Source: Eubacteriales bacterium mix99
GTDB lineage: Bacteria; Bacillota; Clostridia; Caldicoprobacterales; DTU083
Assembly: GCA_038396605.1 (NCBI GenBank)
Contig: CP121690.1
Location: forward strand, 776,500 to 840,499
Reading direction: 5' to 3'
Length of the DNA: 64,000 bases
This document shows positions 46,853 to 64,000 of the stretch, piece by piece; position 1 is the stretch's first letter, and each line of letters starts with the position of its first letter. Below the pieces are notes generated by a model. That model was not told where the DNA came from and made no database searches. It was given only the letters and a program-made list of their open reading frames with translations. The position numbers were made by a program, and so were the translations under genes.

Positions 46853-47047
46853 AAAACTTTACCCCCATCCTAATAGTCGTCATTAATCATTTCAACATTT
46901 CATGAGACGTCTCCGGCCTCCATCTCCCCGGAGGCCACTATTAGTATATCATGGGTATCATACATTATATTGGTACCAAATACATGTTCTTATGATTTGA
47001 TTGGTCAGCAAAGCTATATATATTACACCGTTTGGAGAGATTTTGTC

Positions 47048-48805
47048 ATGTATCTAAAAACTGTAACAAACAAAAAAACTGGACGTACATACTTAAGCAT
47101 GGCGCAAAGCTATCGGAAAAAAGGAAAGAAATATCCAGGCAGTACTACTGTCGAGTCCTTCGGGTATCTGGATGATCTTCAAAAAGTTTACGATGATCCC
47201 ATTGCCCACTTTAAGGCCTATGTAGAGGAGAAGAACAAAGAAAAGGCTTTAAACGATGCGGAATATATCGTAAAAGAACGTAAGGACACTGTTCTCCCTG
47301 AAAATACAGCCGGCCGTAAAAATTTTGGATATATTGCCATTCTAAAGATCTACTATGAGCTGGGATTGGACCGGCTCCTTCTCAACAGGCAGAGAGGCAG
47401 GAATTTCGACTACAACACAAGCACCATATTGAAACTGCTTGTCATATCGCGGATTCTTGAACCTGCATCAAAGAAACGCACCTTTGAGCATCGGAGCACC
47501 TATTTTGATTTCGAGAAGAAAGATGATTTCTCCCTTATTGACATATACCGGTCACTGAGCTTTTATGCAGGGATCGATTCTGCCATACAGCTTCAAATCC
47601 ATAAGCGGATTACAGAGCAGTACAGCCGGGACACCAGCCTGGTATATTATGATGCGACGAATTACTGCTTTGAGATTGATATGGAAGACGAACTGAGGGC
47701 AAAAGGCCCTTCCAAGGAACACCGGCCCAATCCCATTGTACAGCTGGGCCTTGCCATGGATGCAGATGGCATTCCGATTTCTTACGAATTGTTCCCTGGT
47801 AACAATTCGGAAAAGCTGCACCTGAGGCCTATGATTGGAGAGCTTGTACGAGCCTATGAATCCGGCAGAGTTGTCGCAGTGGCTGATGCGGCCCAAAATA
47901 CCGGGAACAACATCTATTACCTGGAAAGCGGCAAATGCTCCTACGTATTCAGCCAGACGATCCGGGAGGGAAGCAAAGAATTCAAGGATTATGTTAATAA
48001 TCAATCCGGTTACAAGCAGTTCAGTGATCAGTACAAGCGCAAGTCCCGGGTAATCAGGCGGGAGATAGAAGTCGATATGTTAAAGGAAGGCGGAAGAACA
48101 TATAAAAAGAAGGTACTTATGGATCAGCGGCAAATCGTTTTCTATAACAAGAAGTATGCGGACCGCTCCAAAGCGAAACGGGAAGCTGTGCTCAAAAAGG
48201 CCCAGTGTATCGCCTCAACACCGTCTGCATACACAAGGGCCACGTCCTATGGGGCTCTCAGATATGTTAAGAATATCAAGGTGGATAAGAAAACAGGTGA
48301 AATCAAAAAAGCTCCCAAAGGCCGGCCATGTATCGACATGGAGAAATTCAGGGAAGATGAAAAGTATGACGGTTATTACTGCATCGTGACAAACCTGTTC
48401 GATGAAGATGGATCCGACACATTCTCTGATGACAGGATCATCGATATGTACCGCGGGCTCTGGCGAATTAAGGATAACTTCCGTGTTACAAAAAGTGATC
48501 TTGAAACGCGGCCTGTGTACGTTTCCCGTAAAGACAGGATTCATGCGCACTTCCTCATTTGTTATATATCGCTGGTAATCCTCAGACTGATCCAAAAACG
48601 TCTTGGTGGCGCGTACTCCCCCGAAGCTATCATCAATGCCCTGAAGAACATTACCTGCTCACCTGAATCCCAAAATATCTATCTTTTTGATTACAGGTCA
48701 GATGTAACGGATGCAATCGGTAAGGCAATGGGCTTCGATTTTACAAAGAAGAGACTTACCCGATCCGAAATTAAAAAAAGTTTAGGACAAGCAAAAAAAA
48801 GATAA
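47048..48805 (+). CDS. IS1634-like family transposase
   Basis: 585-residue DDE transposase of the IS4 superfamily. The acidic triad appears in VYYDATNYCFE, VVAVADAAQNTG and YRGLWRIKDNFRVTKSDLETRP, where the last holds the Glu within the YxxxW...K pattern. It begins MYLKTVTNKKTGRTYLSMAQ, the usual start of this group, behind GGAGAG. It is full length and without frameshifts, so it may be active. I could not find matching terminal inverted repeats, so the element ends are undefined. It lies next to the damaged trailer end of the CRISPR region and may have caused the rearrangement there. Confidence 0.93.
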   Translation: MYLKTVTNKKTGRTYLSMAQSYRKKGKKYPGSTTVESFGYLDDLQKVYDDPIAHFKAYVEEKNKEKALNDAEYIVKERKDTVLPENTAGRKNFGYIAILKIYYELGLDRLLLNRQRGRNFDYNTSTILKLLVISRILEPASKKRTFEHRSTYFDFEKKDDFSLIDIYRSLSFYAGIDSAIQLQIHKRITEQYSRDTSLVYYDATNYCFEIDMEDELRAKGPSKEHRPNPIVQLGLAMDADGIPISYELFPGNNSEKLHLRPMIGELVRAYESGRVVAVADAAQNTGNNIYYLESGKCSYVFSQTIREGSKEFKDYVNNQSGYKQFSDQYKRKSRVIRREIEVDMLKEGGRTYKKKVLMDQRQIVFYNKKYADRSKAKREAVLKKAQCIASTPSAYTRATSYGALRYVKNIKVDKKTGEIKKAPKGRPCIDMEKFREDEKYDGYYCIVTNLFDEDGSDTFSDDRIIDMYRGLWRIKDNFRVTKSDLETRPVYVSRKDRIHAHFLICYISLVILRLIQKRLGGAYSPEAIINALKNITCSPESQNIYLFDYRSDVTDAIGKAMGFDFTKKRLTRSEIKKSLGQAKKR

Positions 48806-48836
48806 TTTTCACTACAACTTCTTCTCATATGATAAA

Positions 48837-48882
48837 AGCCGCAACCTTGCTCATACCTAAGGCTTACGGCTCCTTTTTCTCT
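48837..48882 (+). terminator. Intrinsic terminator after the transposase gene
   Basis: AGCCG (48837-48841) pairs with CGGCT (48867-48871), with CCTT/AAGG also paired inside the loop, followed by CCTTTTTCTCTTTTTT. Confidence 0.7.
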
Positions 48883-49024: not shown

Positions 49025-49112
49025 CTGTTCCCCGCATGAGCGGGGGTGATCCTTAAAGCGTTTCACGATTTGATACAGATAAAACCTTTTTCCCCATGAG
49101 CGAATGTGATCC
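49025..49112 (+). CRISPR. Two-repeat CRISPR remnant, inverted relative to the main array
   Basis: 49025-49052 is the exact reverse complement of the 28-bp repeat of the main array (begins CTGTTCCCCGC, ends GGGTGATCC). After 32 bp (49053-49084) comes a second, decayed copy at 49085-49112 that matches it at 20 of 28 positions. In crRNA direction this reads perfect repeat, spacer, decayed repeat, the normal look of a trailer end. It points opposite to the main array, whose own trailer end is 0.6 kb to the right. Confidence 0.85.
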
Positions 49113-49647: not shown

Positions 49648-49758
49648 TTAACCTAAATTCAGGCTGTTGCTGGCAGCCAGAATTGTGTCGAAGTCAATAG
49701 CTTGCCTTTTCAGCTGCACACCGAGCATGAGGGCATTGATCATGACAGCATTGATAAT
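49648..49758 (-). pseudogene. C-terminal fragment of a gene, fused to a truncated CRISPR repeat
   Basis: On the minus strand an open frame runs out of the CRISPR repeat into coding-looking sequence (INAVMINALMLGVQLKRQ, then AIDFDTILAASNSLNLG) and ends at TAA 49648-49650. The N-terminus is missing: at 49757 the sequence changes to the last 13 bases of the repeat. The 106-residue gene follows 12 bases later. It shows that the left end of the array was joined to, or cut by, a piece of another element. Protein family unknown. Confidence 0.6.
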
Positions 49759-50623
49759 GCGGGGAACAGCCCTTCCCTTTGTACTTCCACTTGTTGAGGA
49801 AGGGATCACCCCCGCTCATGCGGGGAACAGCGGTGAACTGTAAGGAACTGACGGCGGAACAGAGGATCACCCCCGCTCATGCGGGGAACAGTGCTCGGGC
49901 TACTATGGCTTCCGGACTATTCCAGGATCACCCCCGCTCATGCGGGGAACAGTTATCGTCAGAGGTGGAGGAGATTTTTCAGGTAGGATCACCCCCGCTC
50001 ATGCGGGGAACAGGTATTCCGTCATCTGTTGCAAAGCCGGTTCCCAGGATCATCCCCGCTCATGCGGGGAACAGTGGAATTTGACCTTACCAATGGGACC
50101 TTGCTGAGGATCACCCCCGCTCATGCGGGGAACAGCTTGTCATCGTGTCGGTACTCCGGCTTGGGATAGGATCATCCCCGCTCATGCGGGGAACAGTCTC
50201 GCATCTGTGATACCGATGGCCTGTAACAACGATCATCCCCGCTCATGCGGGGAACAGTCCCCGACGTTTTCCATGATGGAAAGAGTCTCGGGATCACCCC
50301 CGCTCATGCGGGGAACAGAAATCATCGGTGGATGCGTGAAAGTCCTTGTTAGGATCACCCACGCTCATGCGGGGAACAGGCAGTACAATAGGCTCTCAGA
50401 TACCGGTCATCAGGATCACCCCCGCTCATGCGGGGAACAGGTAGTGCCCTCCGGCCCGGTGATGGCCAGTACGGGATCACCCCCGCTCATGCGGGGAACA
50501 GAAGTCGCCATCAAGCTATGGGCCCGGAGCGATGGGATCACCCCCGCTCATGCGGGGAACAGCTGCCCGGAATGTGCTCGTCATACTCTAGATGGGGATC
50601 ACCCCCGCTCATGCGGGGAACAG
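49757..50623 (-). CRISPR. Type I-E-like CRISPR array, trailer-side block (14 full repeats)
   Basis: A truncated repeat (49757-49769) and 14 full 28-bp repeats from 49803 to 50623, every 61 bp, with 33-bp spacers (two are 34). On the plus strand the repeat begins GGATCACC and ends GCGGGGAACAG; its reverse complement, CTGTTCCCC onwards, matches the canonical I-E repeat direction, so crRNAs are made from the minus strand and this is the trailer end. Repeats at 50047, 50169 and 50230 have CATCCCC instead of CACCCCC (the last also starts CGATC), and 50352 has CACCCACG. The spacer at 50136-50168 recurs at 54712. Confidence 0.97.
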
Positions 50624-50775
50624 TTGGCATAAAAGCCGATGTATTCCTTCCCGCAGTTCGGGCAAAGGAAGAAGGTTCGCTCGATATCATTCCTGACTCT
50701 CTCGGTCTTGAAATCCTTCTGCTCCAGGTCGAACTCCTTCCCGCAGCCGCCGTCGCCGTCACATTTAACACGCAT
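50624..50775 (-). CDS. Zinc-ribbon phage protein, 3' end cut by the CRISPR repeat
   Basis: The first 50 residues of a small protein with two Cys pairs: MRVKCDGDGGCGKEFDLEQK, then TFFLCPNCGKEYIGFYA. C-x6-C and CPNC would hold one zinc ion, as in small phage regulators and rubredoxin-like ribbons. AGGAGGAG lies just before the ATG at 50775. At 50624 the frame runs into the repeat and stops in it a few codons later, so the original C-terminus is lost. It lies downstream of a terminator, hence as a separate unit in the source phage. Confidence 0.7.
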
Positions 50776-50800
50776 TTGGTCTCCTCCTCCTTATAGGCAT

Positions 50801-50832
50801 AAATAAAGCACTTACAATAACGGAGCAAGTGC
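50801..50832 (-). terminator. Intrinsic terminator within the phage-derived segment
   Basis: On the minus strand GCACTT (50827-50832) pairs with AAGTGC (50808-50813), followed by TTTATTT. It ends the 77-residue gene. Confidence 0.65.
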
Positions 50833-50836
50833 CTTA

Positions 50837-51070
50837 TTATACCCTTAATCTCTTTATTCTGCTTTCCGCCTCAGCTTCCGAAATTTCTTCGATCTTGAGT
50901 AAAGCATCTGTAGCGCCGATTGATTCACCATTATATCCCATCAATCTGTCCATGACAATATTGTCGGAATCCACCATCCAGCCCTTCCCTGTATCGTAAA
51001 GGTATGGGATGTAGTTTTCTATTTTCCCTATTCTGTTGAGATCGCTAATCAAATAAAATTCTGTTTCCAT
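50837..51070 (-). CDS. Small phage-like protein, 77 residues, complete
   Basis: An acidic, soluble protein: METEFYLISDLNRIGKIENY, then GKGWMVDSDNIVMDRLMGYN, and a helical C-terminus IEEISEAEAESRIKRLRV. No known domain. AAGGTGATC lies 5 bases before the ATG, and the stop of the upstream head-protein fragment is 4 bases before it, so both belonged to one phage operon. Function unknown; its position at the end of a head-gene module suggests a virion or maturation role. Confidence 0.7.
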   Translation of the reverse strand: METEFYLISDLNRIGKIENYIPYLYDTGKGWMVDSDNIVMDRLMGYNGESIGATDALLKIEEISEAEAESRIKRLRV

Positions 51071-51074
51071 ACGA

Positions 51075-51327
51075 TCACCTTATCTTGTCGATGTTTTTGG
51101 GTATTTTCAAACTTCCGGAAAGCTCCTTCATCATTTTAGACAGCCGGATTGCTTCACCAGATGATTTATCCTCAATAACCCTCCATTTTTCATACAGTTC
51201 GTGTAATTCTCCATCTTTCAGCTTAAAGCTTTCAGGAGTATGGAACTGCAATTCAAATTTCTGTTTATCCGGGGATTCAAGCACTACATTTATACCCTTA
51301 TAATCGCTTTGCTTAACTGTCCATGTG
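51075..51327 (-). pseudogene. C-terminal part of a phage minor head protein-like gene
   Basis: The last 83 residues or so of a longer protein; the frame enters from the CRISPR repeat at 51328, so there is no genuine start. The sequence TWTVKQSDYKGINVVLESPD, then FELQFHTPESFKLKDGELHE and SSGEAIRLSKMMKELSGSLK, is like the C-terminal domain (RelA/SpoT-like fold) of SPP1 gp7-type head morphogenesis proteins of Firmicutes phages. I make this match from memory of the family pattern; a search would settle it. Confidence 0.65.
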
Positions 51328-54300
51328 GGATCACCCCCGCTCATGCGGGGAACAGGATCCCTCGCGGACAAGCGTCTTTTCCGGCAAGGGATCACCCCCG
51401 CTCATGCGGGGAACAGTATACAGGATCTCACGATATCAGACTGATATAAGGATCACCCCCGCTCATGCGGGGAACAGGGCCTGAAATCCACCCAAAGTGA
51501 ATTATCACAGGGATCACCCCCGCTCATGCGGGGAACAGCTGTATGAGGTTGATGGGAACCAATACTATAAAGGATCACCCCCGCTCATGCGGGGAACAGC
51601 TCCGCCGTCGGCACGGCATTGGACACATAGTCGGGATCACCCCCGCTCATGCGGGGAACAGCTCTCCTCTTCTTCCTCCCGGCCCTTTTCGCTAGGATCA
51701 CCCCCGCTCATGCGGGGAACAGGATGTAAAGGCTATTACGACCAAATTACCACAAGGATCACCCCCGCTCATGCGGGGAACAGCAGAATTACAGCAGAAA
51801 TGTGGAAGGAAAGGTGGGATCACCCCCGCTCATGCGGGGAACAGTCCTGGTGAAAGTACAAGACCGGAATCCGGTGCGGATCACCCCCGCTCATGCGGGG
51901 AACAGATAAGGCGGTCTACGGAAGATGGCCTATCCGTAGGATCACCCCCGCTCATGCGGGGAACAGAGCAAGTAAAAGCGCTGGCCGAGGCAGAAGAAAG
52001 GATCACCCCCGCTCATGCGGGGAACAGCAGCTACTAGAGCGCTATAACAAGGCGCTTTTGGGATCACCCCCGCTCATGCGGGGAACAGTAGGCAGGCTGT
52101 TCTTCGCAGGCAATAACTTCAGGATCACCCCCGCTCATGCGGGGAACAGAGCAAGTAAAAGCGCTGGCCGAGGCAGAAGAAAGGATCACCCCCGCTCATG
52201 CGGGGAACAGCTAAAGTAGATTTGGATTGGTGGTCTATAACAGGGATCACCCCCGCTCATGCGGGGAACAGAGCAAGTAAAAGCGCTGGCCGAGGCAGAA
52301 GAAAGGATCACCCCCGCTCATGCGGGGAACAGTTATATTATTAAGAGATTGATTCAGCATATTTAGGATCACCCCCGCTCATGCGGGGAACAGTAAACTC
52401 CTATCGGGAATTGCTGGACGGCAGGAGGATCACCCCCGCTCATGCGGGGAACAGATATCCAGTCTCAGTTTCCGCTGCTGGATGCGAGGATCACCCCCGC
52501 TCATGCGGGGAACAGCCCAGTAAGGATAAGCATGGTGTCATACTTGCAGGATCACCCCCGCTCATGCGGGGAACAGGTACAAGGGCAAGTGGATCAAGAT
52601 CAAGGAGTAGGATCACCCCCGCTCATGCGGGGAACAGTTTGATGTAGACACTGAGCAGTACCCTGCAGGCGGATCACCCCCGCTCATGCGGGGAACAGCC
52701 CAGGCCCTCCTTGACCTCCCCACCGTAAGAGGGATCACCCCCGCTCATGCGGGGAACAGCCCACCGCCAGCTGCATTGCATCATATTTTTTGGGATCACC
52801 CCCGCTCATGCGGGGAACAGGTGCTGGAAAACGTGCGAGCTGCAAACACATGGGGATCACCCCCGCTCATGCGGGGAACAGTCAAGAGTGGTAATTTCCA
52901 GGGTATCCTCCCCGGGATCACCCCCGCTCATGCGGGGAACAGAGATAAGCCGAGCATCGTTGTTTTCGACGTACAGGATCACCCCCGCTCATGCGGGGAA
53001 CAGACTATTGCCTTAGCGCTAATGCCACTATCTCTTAAATCACCCCCGCTCATGCGGGGAACAGACGCTTGCAATGGAGGGGCTAGCATTAACTATGGGA
53101 TCACCCCCGCTCATGCGGGGAACAGCGAACCTGTCGTTTTGGCTGCTGGGATGTGTGGGGATCACCCCCGCTCATGCGGGGAACAGTTGTCCTCCTATTA
53201 TTTGTTAGGTTTGTAAATGGGATCACCCCCGCTCATGCGGGGAACAGCAAAGGCCCGCAGGTGCAGACCGTAGTTTTTGAGGATCACCCCCGCTCATGCG
53301 GGGAACAGTCGTTTGACCTTCCCCATATCGTCGGTAAAAGAGGATCACCCCCGCTCATGCGGGGAACAGGCAGCCGGCGATCAACATCTGAGATCAAGGA
53401 TAGGATCACCCCCGCTCATGCGGGGAACAGTGCTGCTATTATCCAAGGCCATTTTGGCGTATGGGATCACCCCCGCTCATGCGGGGAACAGAAACTGAGA
53501 GGGGAGCAAGCATGATCACTGCAAGGATCACCCCCGCTCATGCGGGGAACAGCTAAGTAGCGGCTCACAGGTGAGCGTATGAGAGGGATCACCCCCGCTC
53601 ATGCGGGGAACAGCGGCATTTTCAGGTACGGCGGCATTGGTAACCAGGATCACCCCCGCTCATGCGGGGAACAGCGCCCAGAAGATATAAAGAAAAATGC
53701 GGAGGAAGGATCACCCCCGCTCATGCGGGGAACAGCCAGCATCAGGCCCGGCGCTACTGCAATTTCTGGGATCACCCCCGCTCATGCGGGGAACAGTATG
53801 TCCTGAATGGATCTCCTATACCGGGGAAAGGATCACCCCCGCTCATGCGGGGAACAGATGAAATCTTCAATGGATGGAGCCATAAGCCGGGGATCACCCC
53901 CGCTCATGCGGGGAACAGATGAAATCTTCAATGGATGGAGCCATAAGCCGGGGATCACCCCCGCTCATGCGGGGAACAGGTCTGAACAGCGCGGTGAAAC
54001 CCGGAACAGCCGGGATCACCCCCGCTCATGCGGGGAACAGCAGTCTATGGTACTTTATGGCAGGAAGTATGGAGGATCACCCCCGCTCATGCGGGGAACA
54101 GCCGGAAAAATTTGGACACACCTTGTAAATGTGGGGATCACCCCCGCTCATGCGGGGAACAGTGTGGGGATGGAATGATAGAGAGATTGAAGTGAGGATC
54201 ACCCCCGCTCATGCGGGGAACAGGCAAGTTACATTTCGGCTTGTCTTCGGCGTAAAGGATCACCCCCGCTCATGCGGGGAACAGCCTCTACTGTAAATAT

Positions 54301-57300
54301 TGGCGCCTGCTCTGTGGGGATCACCCCCGCTCATGCGGGGAACAGTTGGTCTTGACCACACTGTCCACCGTGCCTACGGGATCACCCCCGCTCATGCGGG
54401 GAACAGACGTTTCCGGGCTTCCTTGATAGCGTTCATACGGGATCACCCCCGCTCATGCGGGGAACAGCCGCCTATGATCAAAGCGCGATCATCGAGACCA
54501 GGATCACCCCCGCTCATGCGGGGAACAGTTTAAGGCGCTATCTTGTGTTATATTTATTTTGGGATCACCCCCGCTCATGCGGGGAACAGTGGTGATAGTA
54601 TGGAGCCGAAATATCCGGATGGGGATCACCCCCGCTCATGCGGGGAACAGTCTGTTTCTTCGGTCTGTGTAGCCCGGTATACAGGATCACCCCCGCTCAT
54701 GCGGGGAACAGCTTGTCATCGTGTCGGTACTCCGGCTTGGGATAGGATCACCCCCGCTCATGCGGGGAACAGTATGTAAGATACCGCAAAAACGCCATCG
54801 GACAGGGATCACCCCCGCTCATGCGGGGAACAGTCGGACATGTTCTTGAAAAATCTTGTAACTGGGGGATCACCCCCGCTCATGCGGGGAACAGCATCTG
54901 CGTGTGGCCCTCCATACAGGGGAGTACAGGATCACCCCCGCTCATGCGGGGAACAGTGTCCTTTACAGGAGAATTCGGCATCCACCAGGGGATCACCCCC
55001 GCTCATGCGGGGAACAGCCATCTATAGTAAGTGGATCTGTCTATATGCAAGGATCACCCCCGCTCATGCGGGGAACAGCTGTTATCGTTGACCCGAGTGC
55101 AGCCTCTTTTAGGATCACCCCCGCTCATGCGGGGAACAGAAAGTGATAGACCTGATCGGAGCACAGGCAGAGGGATCACCCCCGCTCATGCGGGGAACAG
55201 CCGTATTCATCATACCATTCATCAAGCATTGAAGGATCACCCCCGCTCATGCGGGGAACAGTAGTTGAAAGGATTCTCACAAAAAGGGTAGCTAGGATCA
55301 CCCCCGCTCATGCGGGGAACAGCGGATCTTACTCCAGATAAAGTTATGGATCTAAGGATCACCCCCGCTCATGCGGGGAACAGTTCTGGCCACCCAGGTT
55401 CAGCTCAAATTTCTTGAGGATCACCCCCGCTCATGCGGGGAACAGTTGGTTCTCTGTCCGCAGTTTCTCCATTTCCCGGGATCACCCCCGCTCATGCGGG
55501 GAACAGTAGTTGAAAGGATTCTCACAAAAAGGGTAGCTAGGATCACCCCCGCTCATGCGGGGAACAGTTTGCAATCTTACACACTGTATGGGCGTGTTCA
55601 GGATCACCCCCGCTCATGCGGGGAACAGTGGAGGTTAAGTCCATACCCGGCGCAGGTCTTAGGATCACCCCCGCTCATGCGGGGAACAGTATGTAAGATA
55701 CCGCAAAAACGCCATCGGACAGGGATCACCCCCGCTCATGCGGGGAACAGCCGCCTCATCTACCATCACGTCGAGAGATACGGGGATCACCCCCGCTCAT
55801 GCGGGGAACAGTGGGATACGAGCACCTGGCACAGTCGACGGCGGGGATCACCCCCGCTCATGCGGGGAACAGCTTTTTTGAAGCTTCCTGAGTGCTTTTA
55901 TGAAGGGATCACCCCCGCTCATGCGGGGAACAGTATTGCACCATCATCTACGGTGGCGGCAAAGAAGGATCACCCCCGCTCATGCGGGGAACAGACTCTC
56001 TCTGCACCGAATTGGACTTCATCTTGGGGATCACCCCCGCTCATGCGGGGAACAGTTGACGTCAACCGATGTCGACCCATAGGTAATAGGATCACCCCCG
56101 CTCATGCGGGGAACAGTTGTTGGCCTGCTGGTACAGCTCCAGGCTCCAAGGATCACCCCCGCTCATGCGGGGAACAGATGTTGCTGTAATAATGGCTGTT
56201 ATAGCTGGCAGGATCACCCCCGCTCATGCGGGGAACAGCGGAACCGCAAAATGGAAAGCGGCCTTCGGGTAGGATCACCCCCGCTCATGCGGGGAACAGC
56301 TCTGCTTGGAGGGATCACTTTGCGATACGCTAGGATCACCCCCGCTCATGCGGGGAACAGGGATTTTGGGCACAGTTACCCCATCCGCAGCGGGGATCAC
56401 CCCCGCTCATGCGGGGAACAGCCTTGCCCGTGTAGCCATTGCGCAAGCGCAAGGGGATCACCCCCGCTCATGCGGGGAACAGTTTGGTATTTCGGTTTTG
56501 GCGGTGTTGATAAGAGGATCACCCCCGCTCATGCGGGGAACAGATGGCGGAGTGACGGGGGAGCAATCCCCCGGCAGGATCACCCCCGCTCATGCGGGGA
56601 ACAGGACATGGTACAAAAGTGATCAGCGTAAAAAAAAGGATCACCCCCGCTCATGCGGGGAACAGGCCGGTAACAATTAAGGATAAAACAAAAGATGGGG
56701 ATCACCCCCGCTCATGCGGGGAACAGTTGTGTTTGCTTACTATAAGCTACGCTGCGCAGGGATCACCCCCGCTCATGCGGGGAACAGGATGCCGTAAGCC
56801 CGGGAGACGTAAATAAAGTAGGATCACCCCCGCTCATGCGGGGAACAGGCTTCGCTCTCTGTCTCAAGGGCGGCCAGGATGGGATCACCCCCGCTCATGC
56901 GGGGAACAGACGCAGCCATGCTGGCGATCCAGGAGGGGCTAGGGATCACCCCCGCTCATGCGGGGAACAGGTGATGTGATGTTTGATAAAGACGGAAACT
57001 TAAGGATCACCCCCGCTCATGCGGGGAACAGATGTTATTGTATCTGTCGCTGACGCCCTCTACAGGATCACCCCCGCTCATGCGGGGAACAGTGGGCGAT
57101 GTGGTTCGTGCGGCAAAGAATTCAAGGATCACCCCCGCTCATGCGGGGAACAGGATTTGTGAGGACGGACTCACCGATGCCGGATAGGATCACCCCCGCT
57201 CATGCGGGGAACAGTTAAATTCCCAAGCATACCGTCCTGGTGTCCAAGGATCACCCCCGCTCATGCGGGGAACAGCCGAACTAAAGTTGCAGCTCAGAGC

Positions 57301-60300
57301 AGGTGTTAGGATCACCCCCGCTCATGCGGGGAACAGTCGTATCCGTGAGCGGAGGGAAGGACAGTACGGGGATCACCCCCGCTCATGCGGGGAACAGACA
57401 TTACTGCCCTTGAAGGCGATGCAGCATTGGGGATCACCCCCGCTCATGCGGGGAACAGGTTTGAATACACATTAAACAGGGGGAGGTACCGGGATCACCC
57501 CCGCTCATGCGGGGAACAGCCGACTTCTAAAGTTGAGTTCCGGCGCGAAGAAGGATCACCCCCGCTCATGCGGGGAACAGCCATAGCCGGCCCATGCGCC
57601 TTGCAAAGGCGCGGGATCACCCCCGCTCATGCGGGGAACAGTGGACGCTATCGCTGATGAATTGCATGACTGGAGGATCACCCCCGCTCATGCGGGGAAC
57701 AGGCTCAACTACCTTCAACCACCGCTCATACCCCGGGATCACCCCCGCTCATGCGGGGAACAGTCCGGATGAAGATTCATCAGGTAATCCACCTGCGGAT
57801 CACCCCCGCTCATGCGGGGAACAGCCAATGTAAAGGAGGGATAAAATGGCAGAACTAGGATCACCCCCGCTCATGCGGGGAACAGCCATGCGCTTGGATA
57901 TGTCATGGTCCAATACAAGGATCACCCCCGCTCATGCGGGGAACAGTCTATTGCCCAATCGAGCTCCTCCAATTCCTCCGGATCACCCCCGCTCATGCGG
58001 GGAACAGTTTGGAGCGGCGCCCCCGCGATTTCCCAGTGCAGGATCACCCCCGCTCATGCGGGGAACAGCGGTCCCATACACCCTGTTTCCTGCGGAAATT
58101 AGGATCACCCCCGCTCATGCGGGGAACAGAGACATAAAAACTCACACTTCCTTTTTAAATTAGGATCACCCCCGCTCATGCGGGGAACAGCCAATGATAA
58201 ACAAGAACATGTCCATGACACAAGGATCACCCCCGCTCATGCGGGGAACAGTCACAAGCTCATTGACAAGGGGTATCAGCTTAAGGATCACCCCCGCTCA
58301 TGCGGGGAACAGAATAGGCCAGGTAGTCATTATCGATCCCCATTAGGATCACCCCCGCTCATGCGGGGAACAGTCCTTTTCTTGGACATACTCGATCAGC
58401 TGCTGCGGATCACCCCCGCTCATGCGGGGAACAGGATGTGCTCGAAAAAGTCACTTTTGTCTATTTGGGATCACCCCCGCTCATGCGGGGAACAGTTCAT
58501 GGCGTCACCGGTGTCGGCTACCGCGGCAGGATCACCCCCGCTCATGCGGGGAACAGAGTCTTTAAAGCATTAGCCTCTGATGCAGACAAGGATCACCCCC
58601 GCTCATGCGGGGAACAGCAGATTTGACTCGCGAGCAGGCAGCAGAGATGCGGATCACCCCCGCTCATGCGGGGAACAGCCGGTCACACGACGGATTACTA
58701 CATCAACGATGGGATCACCCCCGCTCATGCGGGGAACAGCCAGCGCCTTCTGCTGTCCATGTTGCGACGGGCGGATCACCCCCGCTCATGCGGGGAACAG
58801 GGTATCGGTTGGGGTGTATATGCCGGGTAGATAGGATCACCCCCGCTCATGCGGGGAACAGTTTGACCGGATCGAAGAATTAACCGTTTTTGAAGGATCA
58901 CCCCCGCTCATGCGGGGAACAGGCCGGCAGCGGCAATCCGAGCGGACATGATGTAGGATCACCCCCGCTCATGCGGGGAACAGCTCGCATATAGCTTTCG
59001 TCATTTGCATTGCCGAGGATCACCCCCGCTCATGCGGGGAACAGGTGCGCCATCGGGGCCGTCCGCGAAGCAATCTAGGATCACCCCCGCTCATGCGGGG
59101 AACAGGAATATATTCCTTTTTTGGAACGAATATAAATAGGATCACCCCCGCTCATGCGGGGAACAGCGGCATTTTCAGGTACGGCGACATTGGTAACCAG
59201 GATCACCCCCGCTCATGCGGGGAACAGCGGTGTGCAAAGCCCTTGATGTCGTAATGCTGAGGATCACCCCCGCTCATGCGGGGAACAGTTTTGCAAATTC
59301 GTCCACCGAATAGTCCAGCGAGGATCACCCCCGCTCATGCGGGGAACAGTTCATGGCCTCTCCCATGTCCTCTACTTGGGCAGGATCACCCCCGCTCATG
59401 CGGGGAACAGGAACCGCCCTATCTTATCAGTGCGGTACCCTCGGGATCACCCCCGCTCATGCGGGGAACAGCCTGGATCCCGCAGAGCTCGCCTTTCGCC
59501 CCAGGGATCACCCCCGCTCATGCGGGGAACAGGGAGCGCTGAAGTCGTAATGTTCACTGAGGGTAGGATCACCCCCGCTCATGCGGGGAACAGAGGGTAT
59601 ATATTAAACACGCCTTAAAACGCAAAGGATCACCCCCGCTCATGCGGGGAACAGGCACCAAAAGTAGTATTTGCACAGTGTGCGTGGGGATCACCCCCGC
59701 TCATGCGGGGAACAGTCGTTACTGGTTATCTGGTTGGCTCCTACCTTGGGATCACCCCCGCTCATGCGGGGAACAGCAATTTACGCTCCGCATCCTGCTG
59801 CCCTTTACGGATCACCCCCGCTCATGCGGGGAACAGTCTCCGAGAGATACGAATATGTCCCTCTTGGAAGGATCACCCCCGCTCATGCGGGGAACAGATG
59901 TCCTCCGGCTTGATGTCGATGACCTCACTGGGATCACCCCCGCTCATGCGGGGAACAGTTGCTGGAATTGCCCGGTTCGCAAGTTCCGAAAGGATCACCC
60001 CCGCTCATGCGGGGAACAGTGTTGACGTCAGACAGCTGATTGAGCCACTCTGGGATCACCCCCGCTCATGCGGGGAACAGGCTGATTGAACCACTCTGTT
60101 ACCATTTGTACGGGGATCACCCCCGCTCATGCGGGGAACAGTTTGCAAGCTCGCCGGTTCCTGTGCCTAACTTGAGGATCACCCCCGCTCATGCGGGGAA
60201 CAGTTTTCCCATATGGCTTTCGCCTATTATAAAACAGGATCACCCCCGCTCATGCGGGGAACAGTGTCATCAGAAGGCTGATGGGTGGCAGACTGTAGGA

Positions 60301-63300
60301 TCACCCCCGCTCATGCGGGGAACAGCTACGCTTTATCACTTCCTCAGCATCCGACCGAGGATCACCCCCGCTCATGCGGGGAACAGTTATGGCAGCATTG
60401 AAAGCTGCATATGAAGCGGGGATCACCCCCGCTCATGCGGGGAACAGTGTGCTCGTCAGACAGCGTCTCGTACAGAACTGGGATCACCCCCGCTCATGCG
60501 GGGAACAGTAGATTCTGGAAGACTTGACGGGTCATTTATCAGGATCACCCCCGCTCATGCGGGGAACAGGACACCAAGAAAAGAACCAAAATTTATAAGG
60601 AGGGATCACCCCCGCTCATGCGGGGAACAGTCTTGCCACGATTTATTGATTCCTTGCGATAAGGGATCACCCCCGCTCATGCGGGGAACAGCTCCGTATA
60701 AGTTCCCAGCCCATCCTTTAGCCGGGATCACCCCCGCTCATGCGGGGAACAGATGCTTGAGCAAGTAAAATCGTTAAATAACATGGGATCACCCCCGCTC
60801 ATGCGGGGAACAGATATCTATGCGGAGGGCAGCATAGACAATAGGAGGATCACCCCCGCTCATGCGGGGAACAGCCCAGCTTCATTCACCTCCGTCATTA
60901 CCCATGAGGATCACCCCCGCTCATGCGGGGAACAGAAAGTATGGGAAATTTTCCTCGTCGATCATCTGGGATCACCCCCGCTCATGCGGGGAACAGTTTG
61001 CCGGCATCGGCTCCGGAAGCATCTGCACAGGATCACCCCCGCTCATGCGGGGAACAGTTACTCATATTTCCGAACGTAACGTCGACTACGGGATCACCCC
61101 CGCTCATGCGGGGAACAGACCCATGCCGACCCATCCCACCGATACATACGGGGATCACCCCCGCTCATGCGGGGAACAGCACCCGATACATCCGAGACGG
61201 GTAAACCCTTCAGGATCACCCCCGCTCATGCGGGGAACAGCGGCAGAAGGAGGAAATTATGAAAAAAATGCAAGGATCACCCCCGCTCATGCGGGGAACA
61301 GTCGACAACCGCGGGAAGCAATTAGTTGATATGAGGATCACCCCCGCTCATGCGGGGAACAGTAGATGTAGCCCGCAAATCTAGAGTTTGGGACGGGATC
61401 ACCCCCGCTCATGCGGGGAACAGTTCATCCACACTGTAAATGCTATCCGCGATCAAGGATCACCCCCGCTCATGCGGGGAACAGTACCTTGGTTATGATG
61501 TATATTTTGAATATTCAGGATCACCCCCGCTCATGCGGGGAACAGAGCCAAGTAGTGCGGAAGCTGCGCTCCAAAAAAGGATCACCCCCGCTCATGCGGG
61601 GAACAGGTGTGTTCGTGCATTGTTTTTATACGCAATTAGGGATCACCCCCGCTCATGCGGGGAACAGCTGATGAATCTTCATCCGGAAAATACCATCAAG
61701 GGATCACCCCCGCTCATGCGGGGAACAGCAGGAGGTGGTGAGCCAACCATTGAGCTTGATAGGATCACCCCCGCTCATGCGGGGAACAGTACAAGTCTAA
61801 ATATGCTCCACTAGGCGACGTAGGATCACCCCCGCTCATGCGGGGAACAGACTTTCCCGGACTTTTCTTCCAGCCCTAACCCAGGATCACCCCCGCTCAT
61901 GCGGGGAACAGTTTTGCTGCGTGGATAGCGATCGGGCCGCGGTAGGATCACCCCCGCTCATGCGGGGAACAGTTCCGAACGGGAACAAAAAAGTACCGCA
62001 TGGGAGGATCACCCCCGCTCATGCGGGGAACAGTTGTAAAGACGGTGTGGGCGAGCAAAGAACCTAGGATCACCCCCGCTCATGCGGGGAACAGGGTGAA
62101 ATTGATTCGGATTTTAATGACGGAGTAGGATCACCCCCGCTCATGCGGGGAACAGTGCTCCTCCATCCGCTCTAAAAATTGCACTTCAGGATCACCCCCG
62201 CTCATGCGGGGAACAGTTGTACAATTTTTGATGATAAAGTTTGTGCAAAGGATCACCCCCGCTCATGCGGGGAACAGTCCCCCGGTGCTACCCGAAAGAT
62301 CTCCTTTATAGGATCACCCCCGCTCATGCGGGGAACAGGTTTGAGAGATATCCTGAAATCTAGCGCCGAGGGGATCACCCCCGCTCATGCGGGGAACAGT
62401 AGCAGATTAAGTTTTGTCTGCATACTTGCATAGGGATCACCCCCGCTCATGCGGGGAACAGGTACAACGTCAGTTCAACGGATGTTGAACAGAAGGATCA
62501 CCCCCGCTCATGCGGGGAACAGGTCATCTGACTCTGCGTTTCTGGTCGTAGTAAAGGATCACCCCCGCTCATGCGGGGAACAGGTTGTTGTAGACGGATA
62601 CCACAGATATGTCCAGGGATCACCCCCGCTCATGCGGGGAACAGTAAAGTTGACGGTGTGAATGTAAGATTGACATAGGATCACCCCCGCTCATGCGGGG
62701 AACAGCTGCCGATAGTTCTTATTAGCCCTGACCCCCAAGGATCACCCCCGCTCATGCGGGGAACAGTTTATCGCCAAAGCAGCACAAGCGGCTTATCAAG
62801 GATCACCCCCGCTCATGCGGGGAACAGGGGGATAAGCCAATCAGAAGGCTTGATACAGCGGGATCACCCCCGCTCATGCGGGGAACAGTTGGGATTTTTG
62901 AAACTACGATTATTAACAACAGGATCACCCCCGCTCATGCGGGGAACAGTGAACAGAAGCGGTTGGAAGAAAAGACTGGATAGGATCACCCCCGCTCATG
63001 CGGGGAACAGTGGTACGACGGTGATTACGGTATAGGGGGTACGGGATCACCCCCGCTCATGCGGGGAACAGTACAAGTCTAAATATGCTCCACTAGGCGA
63101 CGTAGGATCACCCCCGCTCATGCGGGGAACAGGATGATTCCGAAAAGGACCTGCCGGGGTATTCAGGATCACCCCCGCTCATGCGGGGAACAGTTCTACT
63201 ACGCCACCCTTCTTTTTCCTGTACAGGGATCACCCCCGCTCATGCGGGGAACAGTTCTTCATGATGGCCGGCAATGGGTTAAAGATAGGATCACCCCCGC

Positions 63301-64000
63301 TCATGCGGGGAACAGCGATAACCCCGATCCCGCAAACTGCAGGTTTGGGGATCACCCCCGCTCATGCGGGGAACAGTGCTGCTCTGGTATGGTGCTGCTT
63401 TTAAGCTTAGGATCACCCCCGCTCATGCGGGGAACAGTTCGGCAGCTTCTTAAATGCCTTTTTCGCCTGAGGATCACCCCCGCTCATGCGGGGAACAGCA
63501 CTTCCAAGTATTCCAGAATTGCCAATACCTGGGATCACCCCCGCTCATGCGGGGAACAGGTACCAACAAACCTCTTGCCATTTTTATAGGCAGGATCACC
63601 CCCGCTCATGCGGGGAACAGGACTATCTGGTCAAAAAGATCGCCCCGTACACAGGATCACCCCCGCTCATGCGGGGAACAGGCGTGCCTATTCTGCATCC
63701 GATAATGTTCTTTAGGATCACCCCCGCTCATGCGGGGAACAGAACATGAGGACTCTTAGTAACATTGAAAAGAAGGGATCACCCCCGCTCATGCGGGGAA
63801 CAGCTAATAAAAAGCGCCATTCAAGGCGCTATCTTGGGATCACCCCCGCTCATGCGGGGAACAGCGAGCGGATCAGGTGGTATCCGAAATGCGAACAGGA
63901 TCACCCCCGCTCATGCGGGGAACAGCTAGGCACATTTTCATGTCCGATATACACTGTAGGATCACCCCCGCTCATGCGGGGAACAGTCCGCCTGGGACCG
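51328..64000 (-). CRISPR. Type I-E-like CRISPR array, main block (about 208 repeats, continues past window)
   Basis: Repeats start at 51328 and the last begins at 63959; 12,631 bp equals 207 intervals of 61 bp plus 4, so about 208 repeats with 33-bp spacers, a few of 32 (for example 59777-59808) or 34. Repeats are almost invariant; one at 53038 starts AAATC. On the crRNA strand each repeat forms a CCCCGC/GCGGGG hairpin. Duplicated spacers occur (see findings). Several spacers hold a ribosome binding site and start codon (57825, 61241), as expected from phage gene starts. Leader and cas genes should lie to the right of the window. All apparent proteins in this stretch are artefacts of the repeat. 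Confidence 0.98.

What the first reader, a model, noticed from the sequence alone, without database searches (positions are those of the whole stretch)
50624..51327. A 704-bp phage fragment in place of a spacer, bounded by perfect repeats
Between two intact repeats lies 704 bp in place of 33. It carries collinear phage-like genes on one strand (head-protein end, a complete 77-residue gene, a terminator, a zinc-ribbon gene start), the outer two cut exactly at the repeats. No insertion sequence or attachment site explains it. Either the adaptation machinery integrated a prespacer more than twenty times the normal length, or phage DNA entered by recombination. If real, the segment is a stored piece of phage that could express a protein or serve as recombination substrate, and would give a very long crRNA precursor.
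Basis: partly seen in the sequence, partly recalled or inferred. Interest (0 to 1): 0.9.

Follow-up and report, generated by a model that had tools for sequence, protein, structure and literature searches.

The report
Phage genes caught between CRISPR spacers
In a very long bacterial CRISPR immune array, one slot that should hold 33 letters of phage DNA holds 704, and its two ends look like two ordinary memories of the same phage, which suggests that recombination with the phage, not one giant capture, put the genes there.

Summary
At 50624-51327, between two perfect repeats of an intact type I-E array (397 repeats; the other 395 spacers are 32-34 bp), lie 704 bp of collinear phage DNA: head-protein C-terminus, a complete 77-aa gene, a hairpin and a zinc-ribbon gene start. 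It has no second copy in the one-contig genome. Three phage contigs keep the head/77-aa gene order.

A single giant prespacer is not the best fit. Spacers here begin with C/T in 377 of 395, as expected for an AAY PAM; homologous phage sites and published I-E PAMs support AA with some exceptions. Both end 33-mers carry this mark. At 51327 the lost upstream codon is Asn (AAY) in 38 of 44 aligned phage rows, and the retained base is C. At the other end, AAC sits exactly 33 nt inside the segment; AAY occurs at 4.6% of positions there.

So the block reads as two ordinary same-strand spacers of one phage plus the 638 bp between them, replacing the repeat. Best explanation: recombination or gap repair using both spacers as homology arms. 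Four 16S copies and six near-identical IS copies in one contig argue against an assembly chimera, but no reads could be checked. Long-prespacer integration remains possible.

The parts
49803..64000 (-). Part of the type I-E CRISPR array inside the window (it continues to 74664 in extended coordinates); read on the minus strand, trailer at 49803, leader/cas end beyond the window
50596..50623 (-). Perfect repeat bounding the block on the trailer side
51328..51355 (-). Perfect repeat bounding the block on the leader side; would supply the 5' handle of any crRNA from this slot
   Evidence: handle role from established type I-E biology
50624..51327 (-). 704-bp phage segment occupying one spacer slot
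51295..51327 (-). Inferred former spacer A (33 nt, first nt C); the lost preceding bases in the phage are AA of an Asn codon, giving AAC
50624..50656 (-). Inferred former spacer B (33 nt, first nt C)
50657..50658 (-). AA preceding inferred spacer B inside the segment (AAC, PAM-like)
51075..51326 (-). C-terminal 83 codons and stop of a phage head-morphogenesis protein (phrog_7625)
50837..51070 (-). Complete 77-aa phage ORF of unknown function; homologues next to the head gene in L009, L010, L011
50795..50845 (-). Terminator-like hairpin followed by U-rich sequence
50624..50775 (-). Start of a zinc-ribbon gene (phrog_1315-like), cut by the repeat; relatives in 4 phage loci are about 100 aa long

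Best explanation
The array once held two adjacent ordinary 33-nt spacers, A (51295-51327) and B (50624-50656), taken from the same strand of one phage about 0.7 kb apart, as primed type I-E adaptation commonly does. Later the phage's own DNA recombined with the array: the A-repeat-B stretch was replaced by A-phage-B, the two spacers serving as 33-bp homology arms, either by gap repair of a break in the array copied from phage DNA or by annealing of a linear phage fragment by a phage-type exonuclease/annealing-protein pair. Shown: the phage origin, the exact repeat boundaries, the PAM-like base at both ends, the internal AAC at 33 nt, the intact cas operon. Inferred: the former A-repeat-B state, the recombination step and the enzymes. 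Predicted outcome: spacer A still follows a repeat and could yield a guide with an abnormal 3' tail; spacer B has lost its handle, so although its protospacer now sits in the chromosome beside an AAC, no crRNA from this slot targets it, which makes the product viable.
For: Segment ends fall exactly at repeats. First spacer nt is C/T in 377 of 395, and in 36+2 of 38, 36 of 39 and 35 of 38 repeats of three arrays of the same repeat type from other genomes. The residue before the 51327 junction is Asn (AAY) in 38 of 44 aligned rows from 43 phage loci, many of them near-duplicates; the 6 other rows (L043, one of two L045 rows, L046, L047, L048, L051) are out of register at the weak end of the set, except L046 at 55% over a short piece. 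AAC lies exactly 33 nt inside the other end; AAY occupies 32 of 702 positions of the segment (4.6%) and 2.9% in the 43 viral loci; offsets of 31, 32, 34 and 35 nt do not give AAY. PAM: 17 of 382 distinct spacers have a homologous site with at most 8 mismatches in 186 loci (2 of 382 shuffled); the best site has A at -1 in 10 of 17 (p 0.004) and AA in 5 of 17 (p 0.008). Published: I-E PAMs AAC, AAT, AAN, AAG among others (PMC8482600, passages); St-Cascade AAN (PMC10281945, passages). Single 3.13-Mb contig with 4 full 16S genes and 6 near-identical IS copies. A gut phage carrying a 4-mismatch site for another spacer encodes an exonuclease and an ssDNA-annealing protein.
Against: The A-repeat-B ancestor was not found (genus: 1 other genome with the 704 bp; family: 12 others with part of the array; order: 29 others, candidates partly scored). 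The key discriminating fact, the internal AAC, has a chance probability of about 3-5%, or more if a 32- or 34-nt spacer is allowed. The true phage was not found, so both PAMs are inferred. The two closest homologous sites to any spacer (3 and 4 mismatches) have AG and AC, not AA, in front. 33 bp is short for RecA-type recombination (recalled), and no recombination enzyme of the donor phage is known. The 732-bp repeat-to-repeat distance is exactly 12 x 61, a coincidence that this model does not explain.
Confidence: 0.6

Rival explanations
1. One aberrantly long prespacer: Cas1 and Cas2-DnaQ integrated an untrimmed 704-bp phage fragment at the leader repeat in a single event, PAM end correctly placed.
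For: Exact repeat boundaries with perfect repeats on both sides; PAM-like C at the PAM-proximal end and Asn codon upstream in phages; intact cas1 and cas2-dnaQ genes.
Against: Does not predict AAC exactly 33 nt inside the other end (4.6% by chance). The other 395 spacers are all 32-34 bp, and 0 of about 110 spacers in three arrays of the same repeat type are long (one 9705-bp interval there separates two arrays and was not examined further). Cas2 carries a DnaQ-like exonuclease domain, thought to trim prespacers (recalled).
Confidence: 0.22
2. Assembly chimera: the assembler walked from spacer A into a co-sequenced phage and back through spacer B.
For: Predicts the same two-spacer signature; the phage is otherwise absent from the genome.
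Against: One contig of 3.13 Mb containing 4 full-length 16S genes and 6 IS copies about 99% identical over 1.84 kb implies long reads or finishing, which do not join on 33 bp. Repeated spacers are resolved (11 sequences in 2-4 copies).
Confidence: 0.13
3. Insertion by a mobile element or by illegitimate end joining at a break in the array.
For: Phage DNA, no clean duplicated spacer halves.
Against: No second copy in the genome, no inverted repeats of 12 nt or more, terminal 20 nt match in only 3 of 20 positions as inverted repeats, and both ends exactly at repeat boundaries.
Confidence: 0.03

Closest known systems
Type I-E CRISPR-Cas with Cas2-DnaQ fusion (Streptococcus thermophilus CRISPR4-like)
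   Same: Full operon cas3, cse1, cse2, cas7, cas5, cas6e, cas1, cas2-dnaQ; 28-bp repeats; spacers of 33 bp; spacer start compatible with an AAN/AAY PAM
   Different: One slot holds 704 bp of phage DNA instead of 33; array unusually long (397 repeats)
Phage-type recombineering (exonuclease plus annealing protein with short homology arms; PMC7516269, abstract and passages)
   Same: Would join a linear phage fragment to the chromosome by two short arms; review gives about 40-50 bases
   Different: Here the arms would be two natural 33-bp spacers and the donor the targeted phage; not demonstrated
Spacer loss or duplication by recombination between repeats (recalled)
   Same: Array changed by homologous exchange; repeated spacers are present here
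   Different: Exchange partner would be phage DNA through spacers, not repeat against repeat

Membership tests
Type I-E CRISPR-Cas | Signature Cse1, Cse2, Cas7e, Cas5e, Cas6e with Cas1, Cas2 | tested here: met
   Pfam hits above cut-off for all seven
Type I-E CRISPR-Cas | Cas3 helicase-nuclease | tested here: inconclusive
   A 935-aa ORF next to cse1 (L053 799-3606) looks like Cas3 by inspection; it was not run against a family library
Type I-E CRISPR-Cas | Regular 28/29-bp repeats with 32/33-bp spacers | tested here: met
   395 of 396 intervals are 32-34 bp; the exception is the finding
Aberrantly long spacer by Cas1-Cas2 | Both ends exactly at perfect repeats | tested here: met
Aberrantly long spacer by Cas1-Cas2 | PAM only at the PAM-proximal end, no spacer-length signature inside the other end | tested here: not met
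   AAC lies exactly 33 nt inside the distal end; chance about 3-5%
Spacer-by-phage recombination product | Both terminal 33-mers look like normal spacers with PAMs in the phage | tested here: met
   inferred from relatives because the phage itself was not found
Spacer-by-phage recombination product | Ancestor or sibling with spacer A - repeat - spacer B | tested here: inconclusive
   Not found in 1 genus, 12 family and 29 order genomes, none of which is the same species
Insertion sequence or mobile element | Terminal inverted repeats, other copies, transposase | tested here: not met
Assembly chimera | Reads fail to span the junctions | not testable with these tools
   No reads; indirect evidence

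The most novel reading that the evidence does not exclude
Pairs of CRISPR spacers taken from one phage act as natural homology arms, so that the very phage they target can be recombined into the array, turning immune memory into a route by which whole phage genes are captured in the host chromosome without self-targeting.
Probability: 0.5. Interest if true: 0.75.

Novelty: new variant of a known kind. Interest (0 to 1): 0.55.

Why it matters
If right, a CRISPR array is not only a record but also a recombination target: each cluster of same-phage spacers offers arms for the phage DNA. That would explain some rare 'long spacers', give a way in which adaptive immunity loses two spacers at once, and a way in which phage genes enter host chromosomes. 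It makes a testable prediction for every oversized spacer: a PAM exactly one spacer length inside the PAM-distal end.

Tried and rejected
Search for the donor phage: DNA of the block against 50,697 phage records gave only a 73-nt match at 75% in two records of one Mannheimia phage with E below 1e-3. The head piece finds phages at 60% identity or less there, 43 IMG/VR loci at up to 68% and 56 GTDB-genome loci at up to 53%; an exact scan of IMG/VR for the B 33-mer gave 0. The 77-aa protein found no IMG/VR relative by the search for related loci although three were present among loci already fetched.

Search for true protospacers: the window part of the array gave no near match in phages or plasmids; one 24-nt leader-end spacer pattern gave 0 in IMG/VR. 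Distant searches mostly returned matches to the CRISPR-like repeat in phage records, plus a few weak spacer homologues. I therefore could only infer the PAM from diverged homologues. No spacer of the array matches the interior of the block with fewer than 11 mismatches.

Self-prophage: the genome has a prophage with a portal gene; its fetched stretches contain one spacer homologue at 7 mismatches with CAC in front; it is not the donor.

Papers: seven searches for oversized spacers or spacer-protospacer recombination listed nothing that I recognised as this event from titles and abstracts; I read listings only, one search listed 20 of 37, and the library holds only openly licensed papers, so this is no proof of absence.

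The 12 x 61 = 732 coincidence was considered; I found no mechanism and treat it as chance (about 1 in 61).

Full report
What is there. The window ends inside a CRISPR array that starts at 49803. Extended with the adjoining chromosome it has 397 repeats up to 74664 (window coordinates) and 396 intervals: 33 bp x380, 34 bp x11, 32 bp x4 and a single one of 704 bp at 50624-51327. The repeats on both sides of the block are perfect. On the minus strand, which is the direction of the repeat-spacer units, the array ends 30 bp from a cas2-dnaQ fusion gene, followed by cas1, cas6e, cas5, cas7, cse2 and cse1 (Pfam; positions) and a 935-aa ORF that looks like cas3 (by inspection). The block is thus near the trailer, the oldest part (trailer-side repeat 14 of 397).

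The block is phage DNA. On the minus strand it holds the last 83 codons of a head-morphogenesis protein (phrog_7625, 3e-17), a complete 77-aa ORF, a strong hairpin (z -5.68) and the first 50 or so codons of a zinc-ribbon protein (phrog_1315, 1.4e-13). Three IMG/VR contigs, L009, L010 and L011, have homologues of the head piece (57-68%) and, directly after it, of the 77-aa protein (40-52%). Zinc-ribbon homologues were found in 4 other loci and are about 100 aa long, so this gene is cut by the repeat. The own genome has no second copy: 1 full match and 27 short pieces at E up to 10. GC is 42% for the block, 47% for the spacers and 50% and 47% for the two flanks.

Two spacers rather than one. The first nucleotide after the repeat is T in 248, C in 129, G in 12 and A in 6 of 395 spacers. 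Three arrays of the same repeat type in other genomes show the same rule: C/T in 38 of 38, 36 of 39 and 35 of 38. This is what a PAM ending in Y leaves behind if its last base is the first base of the 33-nt unit. For the two bases before it, I looked at diverged homologues of the spacers in 186 fetched loci (phage contigs, prophage regions, three stretches of the own prophage region): 17 of 382 distinct spacers have a site with 8 mismatches or fewer, against 2 of 382 shuffled spacers; in the best site of each, -1 is A in 10 of 17 (background 26%, p 0.004) and -2,-1 is AA in 5 of 17 (background 7.7%, p 0.008); over all 49 sites, many from related phages, AA occurs in 24. Against this, the two closest sites of all, at 3 and 4 mismatches, have AG and AC. 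Published type I-E PAMs include AAC, AAT and AAN (PMC8482600, passages), and St-Cascade uses AAN (PMC10281945, passages). I take AAY as the likely PAM.

Both ends of the block fit it. At 51327 the retained base is C, the third base of a codon whose other two bases were lost to the repeat; in the aligned phage proteins that residue is Asn, codon AAT or AAC, in 38 of 44 rows from 43 loci (many near-duplicates; the 6 exceptions are rows where the alignment start is out of register). At the other end, the last 33 nt (50656 down to 50624) begin with C and are preceded by AA. AAY holds 32 of 702 positions in the block (4.6%) and 2.9% of positions in the 43 viral loci, and the neighbouring offsets 31, 32, 34 and 35 do not fit. 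A single long prespacer explains the first end but not the second. Two ordinary spacers from the same strand of one phage, about 0.7 kb apart, explain both.

How it most likely arose. Same-strand clusters of spacers are typical of primed type I-E adaptation (recalled). Once A and B stood side by side, DNA of that phage shared 33 bp with each. Exchange or gap repair at both gives A-phage-B in place of A-repeat-B, with 638 bp of phage DNA in between and the bounding repeats untouched, which is what is seen. Phage recombination systems work with short arms, about 40-50 bases in a review of recombineering (PMC7516269, abstract and passages), and the abstract of a paper on Firmicutes annealing proteins says that they recombine short and rather divergent sequences (PMC8093625, listing only). 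Acutalibacter phage Fontainebleau, which carries a 4-mismatch site for another spacer of this array, encodes an exonuclease and an annealing protein; it is not the donor, and its head-protein C-terminus differs. The donor's own enzymes are unknown.

Consequence, inferred. The leader-side repeat still precedes A, so a guide with an abnormal 3' end is conceivable. B no longer follows a repeat, so no guide from this slot attacks the AAC-flanked copy of B now in the chromosome. No other spacer matches the block with fewer than 11 mismatches. The product is therefore tolerable, and has stayed while the other spacers towards the leader were added, or arose later.

Could it be an assembly error? The two-spacer signature is also what a short-read assembler would create if it crossed into a co-sequenced phage through the shared 33-mers. 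But the genome is one contig of 3,132,933 bp with 4 full-length 16S genes and 6 copies of a 1.84-kb insertion sequence at about 99% identity, which points to long reads or finishing. I could not see reads, so I keep 13% for this.

Odds. I give 0.60 to recombination through two spacers, 0.22 to one long prespacer, 0.13 to a chimera, 0.03 to other insertions. The weak points are the inferred PAM, the missing donor phage, the missing A-repeat-B ancestor and a discriminating fact whose chance probability is a few per cent. The distance of 732 bp between the repeat starts is exactly 12 units of 61, which no model here explains.

Novelty. The system is an ordinary type I-E system; the event in one slot is unusual. 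Seven paper searches (listings only) showed no description that I recognised as this event. I call it a new variant of a known kind.

Noticed in passing
window 49803-64000, continuing to 74664 in extended coordinates: A 397-repeat type I-E array, one of the larger ones (recalled comparison), in which 391 of 397 repeats are identical to the consensus.
   Followed up: partly
window 51967, 52150, 52272 and 71368 (extended coordinates), and ten other spacer sequences: Eleven spacer sequences occur 2-4 times (24 copies in all), some adjacent, some over 7 kb apart; re-acquisition or recombination within the array.
   Followed up: no
window 53614-53646 and 59167-59199: Two spacers that differ at one position, possibly taken from variants of one phage.
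   Followed up: no
window 49025-49052 and 49085-49112, strand -: An orphan perfect repeat in the opposite orientation, 32 bp from a degenerate copy, between an insertion sequence and the array.
   Followed up: no
window 49757-49769: Half a repeat followed by a 33-bp spacer-like stretch just before the first full repeat: decayed trailer end of the array.
   Followed up: no
window 46960-48860: Insertion sequence with a 611-aa transposase beside the array; 6 copies in the genome.
   Followed up: partly
window 50047-50379: Four of the six non-consensus repeats of the whole array lie just trailer-side of the phage block.
   Followed up: no
G000:C1 around 2785000-2825000 (L120, L121): Prophage-like region; the first 20 kb have 60% GC, above the rest examined, and a helicase site 7 mismatches from a spacer of the array.
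   Followed up: partly
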